Below are positions 34,615-39,113 of a DNA stretch of 64,000 nucleotides, in pieces. Origin of the DNA: Thermoleophilaceae bacterium (GTDB lineage: Bacteria; Actinomycetota; Thermoleophilia; Solirubrobacterales; Thermoleophilaceae). Made by a program: the position numbers and the translations under genes. The stretch's first letter is position 1; each line of letters begins with the position of its first letter. The DNA lies in the NCBI GenBank assembly GCA_040901445.1, contig JBBDYQ010000007.1:124001-188000 (forward strand). Reading direction: 5' to 3'. Under the pieces are notes generated by a model that had not been told where the DNA came from, did no database searches, and saw nothing but the letters and a program-made list of their open reading frames with translations.

Positions 34615-34856
34615 TCGCGGATGAAGTCTATTGTGGGTTCGGGAATCGATACTGCCGCGCGGAGCGCGCGGCGAAAGCCATTGCGCTGGAGGGCCGTCTC
34701 GGCACATGCCGGGTCCCGGCAGAGATAGGCCCCCCGGCCCTCCGCACGGGTGTCCGGATCCGGGACGACCTCGTCACCCCGCCGGACGAAGCGCAGCAGC
34801 TCCCCCTTCGGCATCGCCCGCCGGCAGGAGACGCAGCTGCGCCGCGGGCGCGCTAC
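34587..34856 (-). CDS. ylxR: YlxR family RNA-binding protein with no canonical start codon
   Basis: About 89 residues. RSCVSCRRAMPKGELLRFV and GRGAYLCRDPACAETAL are the two conserved blocks of YlxR (DUF448). No ATG, GTG or TTG exists between any plausible upstream point and the CVSC motif; the first ATG (34814) would delete CxxC. The codon in the register of a normal start/stop overlap is GTA (34856-34854), overlapping the nusA stop as GTAG. Starting there gives [11 protein letters not shown], the expected N-terminus. nusA-ylxR-infB order is universal in Gram-positives. Confidence 0.8.
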   Translation of the reverse strand, partial: VARPRRSCVSCRRAMPKGELLRFVRRGDEVVPDPDTRAEGRGAYLCRDPACAETALQRNGFRRALRAAVSIPEPTIDFIREWQRSESTR

Positions 34857-36445
34857 GACGCCCGGTCCTCCGCTTCCGCCGGAACCTCCGCCTCGGCGGC
34901 GGCCTCCGGCTCCGGCTCCTGCTCGGCCTCGGGCACGGCTTCGGCCTCGGCTTCGGCTTCGGCCTCGGGCACGGCTTCGGCCTCGGCTTCGGCTTCGGCC
35001 TCGGGCACGGCTTCGGCCTCGGGCACCGTGGTGGGCGCTTCGGGATCGAACTGCGGCTCCTCCGCAGCGGCCTCCTCGGCGGCGGCCGGCTCCGCCTCCG
35101 GCTGGCCGTCGGCCTGGGGCTCGCCCTCGGCCTCCGGCTCGGGCGCCGGCTCGGCCCCGCCCTCGGCCTCCGGCTCGGGCGCCGGCTCGGCCCCGCCGAC
35201 CCGATCGGTGTCCTTGCCCTCGAGCTCCTGATGGGAGGACAGGCCGCAGTAGCGCGAGCCCGGCAGGGTGGCGTTGGGGCAGCGCTTGCCGTTGGAGAGG
35301 ACGGCGGCGCACTTGCCGGCGACGTCCTCCTCCTCGTAGCCCATCGTGGCCTCCTCCTCCGCGAACTCGGTCTCCGAGCGGATGTCCACCCGCCAGCCGG
35401 TGAGGCGGGCGGCGAGGCGGGCGTTCTGGCCGTCCTTGCCGATGGCGAGCGAGAGCTGGTCGTCGGGCACGATGACCGTGGCCTGCATGTTCTCGTCGTC
35501 CACGAGCACCTCGCGCACGCGCGCGGGCGAGAGCGCCTTGGCCACGAAGCGGGCCGGCTCCTCGTTGAAGGGGATGATGTCGATCTTCTCGCCGCGCAGC
35601 TCCGACACCACCATGCGCACGCGTGAGCCGCGCGGCCCGACGCAGGCGCCGACGGGATCCACGCCGCTGGCGTGCGAGACCACCGCGATCTTCGAGCGGT
35701 AGCCGGGCTCGCGCGCGACGTTCTGGATCTCCACCAGGCCGTCGGCGATCTCGGGCACCTCGAGCTCGAACAGGGCGCGGATGAGCTCGGGCGACCGGCG
35801 CGAGACGATGATGCTCGGGCCCTTGGCCTGGTTGGAGACCTCGGTGATGATGGCCTTGATGCGCTGGCCGTGGTCGTAGCGCTCCTGGTACACCTGCTCC
35901 GACTTGGGCAGCAGCGCCTCGACCCGCTCGCGCAGCTGGACGAGCGTGTAGCGCGAGTCGGTCTGCTGGACGATGCCCGTGATGAGCTCGCCGACGCGAT
36001 CCTGGTACTCGTCGAACATCATGTCCCGCTCGGCCTCGCGGATGCGCTGGAGGATGACCTGCTTGGCCGTCTGCGCGGCGATGCGCCCGAAGTTCTCGGG
36101 CGTGACGTCGCGCTCGTCGATCTGGTCGCGGTACTCGGCCAGCATCTCCGGGTCGAGCTCGGGATCCTCCGGCTCGCGCAGCTCGCCGGTCTCGGGATCG
36201 ACCGTGGGCTCCTCCACCTCGACCTCGGCGAGCAGCTTCTCCTCCAGGTCCTCGGGCACGAGCAGCTCGAATACGCGGAACTCGCCGCTGTCGTGATCGA
36301 TCTCCACGCGGGCGTACTTGGCCGCCCCGGGCGTCTTCTTGTAGGCGGACAGGAGGGCGTCCTCGAGCGCCAGGGTCAGCCGCTCGGCCGAGATGCCCTT
36401 CTCGCGCTCGAGCATGACCATCGCTTCGACGATTTCCTTGGACAT
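34853..36445 (-). CDS. nusA: Transcription factor NusA with extended C-terminus
   Basis: 530 residues; actinobacterial NusA is usually about 330-370. The N-terminal domain is followed by S1 ([20 protein letters not shown]), KH1 ([19 protein letters not shown]) and KH2 ([18 protein letters not shown]). After 370 comes an extra segment C379-x9-C389-x10-C400-x4-H405 ([21 protein letters not shown]), like a small zinc-binding domain. A tail of about 120 residues rich in Glu/Ala/Pro follows, including 12-residue repeats. Function of the extension unknown. Confidence 0.95.
34926..35020 (-). repeat. 36-bp tandem repeat in the nusA tail
   Basis: Units start at 34926, 34962 and 34998 (the last one partial). 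Each encodes [12 protein letters not shown]. Identical unit sequence points to recent slippage expansion. Confidence 0.85.
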
Positions 36446-37056: not shown

Positions 37057-37980
37057 CTAGGCCGGGGTCGCCCAGACGATCAGGTCCCCATCCGTGAAGA
37101 CCGTGGTCCCGGCAATGCCGCCGCATCTGAGGCGCATCGTGTACGTGCCGGCGGGCTTCTCGACCGATCCGGCAACCGGGACGCCGACGGTGTCGCTTGC
37201 GGCATCCGGAATGCTGACCGTGACGCGACTGCCGATCTGGGGATCGGTGCCGGGGTCGATGAAGCAGTAGACCTCGTCGTCGCCCCCTCCGTCGCCGTCG
37301 ACCTCGGCCACGCCGGTGGCGAGGATCCGCCCGGCGAAGGGAAGGGTGATCGTGGTCTGGGCGACAGTCGTCTCGATGCCGGAGAGCGTCACGTTCGTCC
37401 CGGTTGAGATCTCCGCCGACACCGTGGGCCCTGGCGGACCCGTGGCTCCCGCGGGACCGGCGGGCCCCTGTGGCCCTGCCGATCCCTGCGGCCCCGTCTG
37501 GCCCTGGAGCTGGCTCGCGTCGAGGCCGTCGACCTTGTCGGCGTTGAGGTTCGTGACGAGGCCGGTGGCGTTGGTGGTGAACGGCGCCCCCGCGGGGTTG
37601 CCGAGGTCGAAGTGGCCCACCGTCGGGCCCTCCTGCGAGCGGAACAGGAACGCCTTGCCGCCGCGCAGGTTGTCCGCATACAGGCACGCCACGTTGTCGC
37701 CAGGAGGCGCGTCCGGAGCCCGGCAGCCATACACCGCGCCGCCGCCGCCGCCCTCCTGCGTGTTCGACAGCCGCAGCGAGTAGCCGTCGCTGGCCGTCAC
37801 CAGGCCCGTCTCCCCGCGCGAGCGGTTGCGCAACTCGATCTCCACCGGCTCCCCGCGCGCGTTCCCGGCCGTGACCGCCCCACCGCCGTCGCCCAGCGCG
37901 GCATACCCGGTGCCCGCACTCGCCATGACGAGCGCGATGAGCGAGAGCACCAGTGATGGGTTCAGATGACGTGGGTTCAC
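37057..37980 (-). CDS. Secreted collagen-like protein A
   Basis: 307 residues. Signal peptide SLVLSLIALVMASAGTGYAA. An N-terminal domain of about 150 residues (GEPVEIELRNRSRGETGLVTA...) is followed by a short collagen-like Gly-X-Y tract (GPQGSAGPQGPAGPAG) and a C-terminal beta-type domain ending with PAGTYTMRLRC. The N-terminal half is almost identical to protein B. GTG 37980 overlaps the small upstream gene (GTGA). Probably a surface or exported protein. Confidence 0.75.
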   Translation of the reverse strand: MNPRHLNPSLVLSLIALVMASAGTGYAALGDGGGAVTAGNARGEPVEIELRNRSRGETGLVTASDGYSLRLSNTQEGGGGGAVYGCRAPDAPPGDNVACLYADNLRGGKAFLFRSQEGPTVGHFDLGNPAGAPFTTNATGLVTNLNADKVDGLDASQLQGQTGPQGSAGPQGPAGPAGATGPPGPTVSAEISTGTNVTLSGIETTVAQTTITLPFAGRILATGVAEVDGDGGGDDEVYCFIDPGTDPQIGSRVTVSIPDAASDTVGVPVAGSVEKPAGTYTMRLRCGGIAGTTVFTDGDLIVWATPA

Positions 37981-38180
37981 TTTCGGCTCTCTTCGGAAAT
38001 CGGGGGGGTGGACTGCGGTTGCGCGGTGACGCTCGCGGCTCCGCCGCGGGCTGCCTCGAGCGCCCGGGCGAGGTCGAGCCAGCCCTCGAAGTCGAGGGCC
38101 GGCTCGCCGATCCGCCCCCGGATCGGCTCGGCGTCGAGCTCGAGCTCGACGACCACCCGCACGTGGCGCGGAGCGGGCAT
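37977..38180 (-). CDS. Small conserved-looking protein between the collagen-like genes
   Basis: 67 residues: HVRVVVELELDAEPIRGRIG, then ALDFEGWLDLARALEAARG. It reads as a beta-beta-alpha unit. It starts 3 nt after the stop of gene B and ends in a GTGA overlap with gene A, which argues for real translation. I recall similar small acidic proteins in Thermoleophilia, but assign no function. Confidence 0.6.
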   Translation of the reverse strand: MPAPRHVRVVVELELDAEPIRGRIGEPALDFEGWLDLARALEAARGGAASVTAQPQSTPPISEESRK

Positions 38181-38183
38181 GGG

Positions 38184-39113
38184 CTACGTGGCGACGGCGA
38201 TCAGCGTGATGTCGCCGGCGTCGAACGTCGGGGAGCCGCTGTTGGCCGCGCATTCGAGGCGCACGGTGTAGGTGCCGGCCGGCTTGAGGGCCGCGCCGGT
38301 GAAGGACGCCGAGGTTCCGCCGAGAGCGGGTGTCGAGTTCTCCGGCACGTACACCTGGTAGTCCTGGCTGATGTCCTCCGTCGCGGGGGCATCGAGCTCC
38401 AGCTTGCAGGGGAACTGATCATCGATCGTGTCCTCGCTCGCGTTGAAGCTCGCCGACGCGTTCGCGACGATCCGGCTCTCCACCGTCGTCGTGATCGTCG
38501 CCTGGACGAGCGTCGTCGGCCCACCGAAGGCCTGATTGGTGTCCGACGAGCCGTAAGCCGACGCGGTCGGCCCCGCCGGTCCCTGCACTCCGGTCGCTCC
38601 GGTCGGGCCTGCGGGCCCCTGCGGACCCGTCGCGCCCTGCAGCTGCGCGGCGTCGAGCCCGTCGACCTTGTCGGCGTTCAGGTTCGTGACGACGCCGGTG
38701 GCGTTGGTGGTGAACGGCGCCCCCGCGGGGTTGCCGAGGTCGAAGTGGCCCACCGTCGGGCCCTCCTGCGAGCGGAACAGGAACGCCTTGCCGCCGCGCA
38801 GGTTGTCCGCATACAGGCACGCCACGTTGTCGCCAGGAGGCGCGTCCGGAGCCCGGCAGCCATACACCGCGCCGCCGCCGCCGCCCTCCTGCGTGTTCGA
38901 CAGCCGCAGCGAGTAGCCGTCGCTGGCCGTCACCAGGCCCGTCTCCCCGCGCGAGCGGTTGCGCAGCTCGATCTCCACCGGCTCCCCGCGCGCGTTCCCG
39001 GCCGTGACCGCCCCGCCGCTGTCGCCCAGGGCCGCGTAGCCGGTGCCCGCGCTGGCCATCACCAGCGCGATCAGGGACAGGACGAACGACGGGCTCGGGT
39101 GCCGTGATCTCAT
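38184..39113 (-). CDS. Secreted collagen-like protein B
   Basis: 309 residues, paralogue of A with the same signal peptide and N-terminal domain, a collagen tract (GPQGPAGPTGATG) and a divergent C-terminal domain ending with PAGTYTVRLEC. ATG 39113 has an AAGGAGG Shine-Dalgarno, the strongest start of the three-gene unit, so B is the lead gene. It diverges from the LuxR regulator. Confidence 0.78.
   Translation of the reverse strand: MRSRHPSPSFVLSLIALVMASAGTGYAALGDSGGAVTAGNARGEPVEIELRNRSRGETGLVTASDGYSLRLSNTQEGGGGGAVYGCRAPDAPPGDNVACLYADNLRGGKAFLFRSQEGPTVGHFDLGNPAGAPFTTNATGVVTNLNADKVDGLDAAQLQGATGPQGPAGPTGATGVQGPAGPTASAYGSSDTNQAFGGPTTLVQATITTTVESRIVANASASFNASEDTIDDQFPCKLELDAPATEDISQDYQVYVPENSTPALGGTSASFTGAALKPAGTYTVRLECAANSGSPTFDAGDITLIAVAT

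What the first reader, a model, noticed from the sequence alone, without database searches (positions are those of the whole stretch)
37561..38965. 272 bp identical between two tandem collagen-like genes
37561-37832 and 38694-38965 are identical by eye, third codon positions included, while the collagen and C-terminal parts have diverged. This is the pattern of gene conversion keeping one module uniform while the exposed C-terminal module diversifies.
Basis: partly seen in the sequence, partly recalled or inferred. Interest (0 to 1): 0.55.

Follow-up and report, generated by a model that had tools for sequence, protein, structure and literature searches.

The report
Recent gene conversion between collagen-like paralogues
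Two neighbouring old genes for probably secreted collagen-like proteins share one 320-base stretch that seems to have been copied recently from one to the other, an ordinary recombination event seen in this one pair rather than a standing mechanism.

Summary
The stretch lies inside two old paralogues. In it 106 of 107 same-residue codons are the same codon; in the conserved N-terminal flank 8 of 25 are (Fisher p 1.7e-14), and the C-terminal heads are 35% identical in protein. A third paralogue keeps 56 of 88 codons over the tract, so constraint on the DNA is not the cause. Best reading: one recent gene conversion of about 320-360 bp, perhaps from the upstream gene B into A. The wider claim, that conversion keeps the module uniform, is not supported: of 70 within-genome pairs in 22 genomes no other shares more than 60 bp, and the three other tandem pairs share 35, 29 and 20 bp. 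The proteins look like secreted collagen-like trimers: hydrophobic N-terminus, an unnamed module of about 110 residues matched in 61 of 232 genomes of the order, 8-9 Gly-X-Y triplets, and a head modelled as C1q/TNF-like (low confidence). Ordinary, though cleanly documented.

The parts
37057..37980 (-). Gene A: probably secreted collagen-like protein, 307 aa, GTG start
   Evidence: ORF and translation; paralogue search
38184..39113 (-). Gene B: probably secreted collagen-like protein, 309 aa, ATG start
   Evidence: ORF and translation; paralogue search
37561..37881 (-). Near-identical tract in A (320 of 321 bases; 272 exact at 37561-37832)
38694..39014 (-). Near-identical tract in B (same tract, offset 1133)
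37882..37980 (-). A: hydrophobic N-terminal segment, 5' flank of the tract, silent sites diverged
   Evidence: 8 of 25 same-residue codons equal to B; third positions 42%
39015..39113 (-). B: hydrophobic N-terminal segment, 5' flank of the tract
37423..37503 (-). A: nine Gly-X-Y triplets (aa 160-186)
   Evidence: weak Pfam Collagen PF01391, E 1.7e-4, below the gathering score
38565..38636 (-). B: eight Gly-X-Y triplets (aa 160-183)
   Evidence: weak Pfam Collagen, E 0.0017, below the gathering score
37060..37422 (-). A: C-terminal head, homologous to the head of B
   Evidence: 35% amino-acid identity to B; A and B tails form their own group of two
38187..38564 (-). B: C-terminal head, modelled as a C1q/TNF-like beta-sandwich
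   Evidence: AlphaFold2 model, head blocks at pLDDT 50-78; PDB matches
37977..38180 (-). 67-aa ORF between B and A, stop overlapping the start of A (GTGA)
   Evidence: homologues in 8 of 101 genomes, own included

Best explanation
A and B are old tandem paralogues that encode probably secreted, probably trimeric collagen-like proteins. One recent non-reciprocal homologous recombination (gene conversion) copied a tract of about 320 bp (up to about 360 bp if the two differences at 37546 and 37560 arose afterwards) from one gene into the other and reset the divergence of the N-terminal module; one silent change in the tract arose since or was left unconverted. The tract ends where similarity falls off: in the N-terminal hydrophobic codons on one side and at the linker before the Gly-X-Y run on the other. 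Shown: the tract, the diverged homologous flanks, and the freedom of silent sites in a third paralogue. Inferred: the recombination route (RecA-type repair from the neighbouring copy) and the direction B to A (weak).
For: Exact tract and its limits. Same codon given same residue, A against B: tract 106 of 107, 5' flank 8 of 25, 3' flank (37490-37560) 16 of 21. Against paralogue C10 the tract keeps 56 of 88, so silent sites there can change. Variable sites among A, B and C10: in the tract 58 of 59 group A with B (the other differs in all three); the 5' flank gives 10 A=B, 15 B=C10, 7 A=C10 and 3 three-way, so in the 5' flank A and B are no closer to each other than B is to C10. Longest run of A=B sites 52 of 112 variable sites; 0 of 100,000 shuffles reach it. 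DNA between and beyond the genes shows no matching repeat, so this is not a recent duplication of the whole unit. Direction: over the 5' flank B keeps 14 of 22 codons with C10, like the tract (56 of 88, p 1.0), while A keeps 7 of 24 (p 0.005).
Against: No second strain or species of the genus is held, so the state before conversion cannot be seen. Reads were not available, so a consensus error over the repeat cannot be formally excluded. In the 3' flank (37440-37560) the largest class is A=B (17 sites, against 14 A=C10, 7 B=C10, 7 three-way), so there A and B are somewhat closer to each other than to C10. The direction test compares different gene regions with few codons and fails if the N-terminal codons of A evolve faster; A against B in that flank gives only p 0.037.
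Confidence: 0.86

Rival explanations
1. Recurrent gene conversion keeps the N-terminal module uniform in this family (concerted evolution) while the head diversifies. (Not exclusive of the event itself.)
For: The tract lies within the module, and head domains do differ between paralogues.
Against: 69 of 70 within-genome pairs in 22 genomes lack such a tract; the next longest shared run is 60 bp, and the other three tandem pairs (C25 in this genome, G112:C105, G031:C1) share 35, 29 and 20 bp. Draft assemblies could hide further tandem pairs.
Confidence: 0.05
2. A recent duplication of the gene or module followed by replacement of the N-terminus and head from other genes.
For: C10 has the same N-terminal part with a different head, so heads have been exchanged in the family.
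Against: Needs several events instead of one. A and B heads are homologous and, among the tails compared, group only with each other; the two N-termini are aligned homologues with mostly the same residues and different codons, as expected of old paralogues left in place.
Confidence: 0.07
3. Assembly artefact: one module copied onto both genes by collapse of a repeat.
For: The genome is a 25-contig draft, and one of its contigs ends in a long poly-G run, which I take as a sign of short reads (recalled).
Against: The two copies lie in one contig with distinct flanks and keep one difference at 37833 inside the 321-bp tract. Collapse needs copies that are nearly identical already, and a repeat-unique piece-repeat layout has only one path through an assembly graph (general reasoning, not a tool result).
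Confidence: 0.04
4. Selection on the nucleotide sequence itself (RNA structure, overlapping antisense ORF, codon bias).
For: Antisense ORFs overlap the tract. In some other genomes codon bias keeps up to 90% of same-residue codons between paralogues.
Against: C10 differs in 32 of 88 same-residue codons over the tract; the C25 tandem pair of this genome keeps 67%.
Confidence: 0.01

Closest known systems
Gene conversion between tandem PE_PGRS17 and PE_PGRS18 of Mycobacterium tuberculosis (PMC1762029; abstract and passages seen)
   Same: A GC-rich tandem duplicate pair; a block of differences moves from one copy to its neighbour.
   Different: There many strains show the event, said to have occurred several times; here a single genome shows one tract.
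Gene conversion tracts in M. tuberculosis paralogues (PMC13061034, preprint; start of abstract in a listing and passages seen)
   Same: Short tracts between paralogues, median 101 bp (IQR 33-244); the tract here is of the same order, somewhat longer.
   Different: Found by comparing 151 complete genomes; here inferred from silent-site divergence within one genome.
tuf gene conversion in Salmonella (PMC5485169; abstract and passages seen)
   Same: Conversion between two paralogues of one chromosome, dependent on sequence identity.
   Different: There identity ends at the gene boundaries; here the tract ends inside the genes where similarity declines.
BclA-type collagen-like proteins of Bacillus
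   Same: N-terminal part, Gly-X-Y stretch and a C-terminal head of C1q/TNF kind (architecture recalled); BclA heads are among the PDB matches to the model.
   Different: Only a weak collagen match by sequence; 8-9 triplets; an N-terminal module without a Pfam or NCBIfam match; no evidence of a spore role.

Membership tests
Gene conversion tract between paralogues | A sharply bounded stretch of near-identity between paralogues | tested here: met
   320 of 321 bases, limits at 37560/37561 and 37881/37882
Gene conversion tract between paralogues | Homologous flanks on both sides that diverged earlier | tested here: met
   5' flank 8 of 25 same codons, 3' flank 16 of 21, head 35% protein identity
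Gene conversion tract between paralogues | Silent sites in the tract not constrained | tested here: met
   56 of 88 same codons against C10
Gene conversion tract between paralogues | Pre-conversion state seen in a related strain | not testable with these tools
   only one genome of the genus held
Concerted evolution of a gene family | Copies within a genome homogenised repeatedly, in many copies or genomes | tested here: not met
   1 of 70 pairs in 22 genomes
Bacterial collagen-like proteins with C1q/TNF-like head (BclA-like architecture) | Run of Gly-X-Y triplets | tested here: met
   9 and 8 triplets; Pfam Collagen match below the gathering score
Bacterial collagen-like proteins with C1q/TNF-like head (BclA-like architecture) | C-terminal jelly-roll head of the C1q/TNF kind | tested here: inconclusive
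   Model from two sequences, mean pLDDT 43, head blocks 50-78. Foldseek: 4 matches at E <= 0.001, all chains of antibody-complex entries, one titled CD40L (E 5.4e-4). VIA-align Z 8.5-11.8 in the 50 rows shown: Pgp3, PLTL and BC2L-C lectins, BxpB, C1q, BclA, but also viral capsid and phage spike jelly rolls
Bacterial collagen-like proteins with C1q/TNF-like head (BclA-like architecture) | Forms a trimeric triple helix at the cell surface | not testable with these tools
   needs purified protein

The most novel reading that the evidence does not exclude
The 272-bp direct repeats act as a recombination switch: crossing-over between them would delete 1133 bp and join the N-terminus and module of B to the head of A, or amplify the unit, so that conversion which renews the repeat keeps this head-switching possible.
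Probability: 0.04. Interest if true: 0.45.

Novelty: new member of a known kind. Interest (0 to 1): 0.2.

Why it matters
It is a clean single-genome example of how a gene conversion tract is recognised and where it stops, and a warning against reading one conversion event as a family-wide mechanism. The side result, an unnamed module with interchangeable heads that at E <= 1e-8 was matched only in one order of the class sampled, may help annotation.

Tried and rejected
Looked for the same pattern elsewhere: 70 within-genome pairs, none comparable. The second tandem pair of this genome (C25) has no tract. One pair in G056 shares 60 bp; not followed up. Copies were found at E <= 1e-8 with a first look that scores a limited number of candidates per genome (at most 19), so some copies may be missing. 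Viral origin: PHROGs matches (best E 1.2e-6; 11 of 19 families for B and 11 of 17 for A are tail families) lie mainly over the Gly-X-Y stretch; a viral-contig scan with the module found no relative. Genome contigs gave three distant matches, two in Nocardioides and one in a Peptococcaceae assembly, so parts of the layout (the LNADKVDG linker) occur outside the order. No Pfam or NCBIfam match to the module and no solved relative by sequence (best E 0.55). The structure model says nothing on the module (pLDDT 24-34); the second structure job was not used. Seven paper searches, judged from their listings, showed no paper on these proteins or on gene conversion in bacterial collagen-like genes; this speaks only of those searches. 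The order is probably Solirubrobacterales (recalled, not tested).

Full report
What is there. On the minus strand lie gene B (38184-39113), a 67-aa ORF (37977-38180) and gene A (37057-37980). A and B share a layout: hydrophobic N-terminus, a module of about 110 residues followed by NLNADKVDGLDA, 9 or 8 Gly-X-Y triplets, and a C-terminal head. Upstream of B a large ORF that looks like a LuxR-type ATPase regulator reads away; downstream of A lie ORFs that look like rimP, nusA and infB (these names are my reading of the translations, no family search was run on them).

The observation. Outside, identity falls: third positions agree in 42% of the first 33 codons, the linker is 85% identical, the Gly-X-Y part 68%, and protein identity of the heads is 35%.

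Is it conversion? The N-termini of A and B have mostly the same residues and mostly different codons (8 of 25 same), whereas in the tract 106 of 107 are the same (Fisher p 1.7e-14). A third paralogue (C10) has the same kind of module but keeps only 56 of 88 codons with the tract, so silent sites there do change. In the tract 58 of 59 variable sites join A with B; in the 5' flank the three genes are about equally far apart (10 A=B, 15 B=C10, 7 A=C10, 3 three-way). In the 3' flank (37440-37560) the counts are 17 A=B, 14 A=C10, 7 B=C10 and 7 three-way, so A and B are there somewhat closer to each other; beyond that the head of C10 is a different one and cannot be compared. The tract is therefore younger than the split of the two genes. 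DNA between and beyond the genes is not repeated. One conversion of about 320-360 bp explains this. The permutation test (0 of 100,000) used the sites that define the tract and is descriptive. Direction B to A is suggested by the 5' flank of B matching C10 as well as the tract does (14 of 22 against 56 of 88) while that of A does not (7 of 24, p 0.005); this is weak.

Is it a system? At E <= 1e-8 the module profile matches 61 of 232 genomes of the order and 44 of 399 of a class sample, all 44 in the same order. The 22 genomes with two or more matches were all compared, 70 pairs. A/B shares 272 bp; the next pair 60 bp (G056); the three other tandem pairs 35, 29 and 20 bp. So the module is not kept uniform in general. 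The tract lies where paralogues stay most alike anyway: against C10, A is identical at 68 of 96 sites in the 5' flank and B at 76 of 96, and the tract at 256 of 315 (from the counts). That conversion depends on sequence identity is stated in PMC5485169 (passages); short tracts between paralogues (median 101 bp) are reported for M. tuberculosis in PMC13061034 (passages), and conversion in a tandem pair of that species in PMC1762029 (abstract and passages).

What the proteins may be. The head of B is modelled as a beta-sandwich with low to moderate confidence and matches C1q/TNF-like folds, among them the bacterial lectin BC2L-C and Bacillus BclA and BxpB, and also other jelly rolls such as viral capsid and phage spike proteins; the model rests on two sequences and its mean pLDDT is 43. 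Of 82 distinct module genes in the loci in hand, 9 have a Gly-X-Y run of at least 5 triplets; their tails of at least 40 residues (79) fall into 11 similarity groups, two of them large (45 and 20). C10 has the A/B N-terminal part with another head. So the family joins one module to several heads, and collagen is a minority feature.

Limits. There is no second genome of the genus, no reads, and the assembly is a draft. Secretion, trimer formation and function are inferred from architecture alone.

Noticed in passing
window 37977-38180 (-): A 67-aa ORF overlaps the start of A (GTGA), suggesting translational coupling. Homologues occur in 8 of 101 genomes (own included); in three of the nine loci from other genomes that I scanned, an ORF with Gly-X-Y repeats lies near it.
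   Followed up: partly
L043 4593-7557: A second tandem pair of the same family in this genome, with different heads, lies downstream of a 1086-aa ORF that looks like a regulator (my reading).
   Followed up: partly
L042 end (G000:C10:176181): The contig that carries paralogue C10 ends in a long poly-G run close to the gene, probably a sequencing or assembly artefact.
   Followed up: no
G110:C43:70870-71160: A copy of the module in a related genome has an in-frame TGA and may be a pseudogene.
   Followed up: no
L065 and L018 (G056): Two module genes on different contigs share a run of 60 identical bases and 87% of codons at same-residue positions (n = 60) though only 55% identical in protein.
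   Followed up: no
window 34853-35231 (-): The C-terminal end of the ORF that looks like nusA is a long repetitive Glu/Ala/Pro tail.
   Followed up: no
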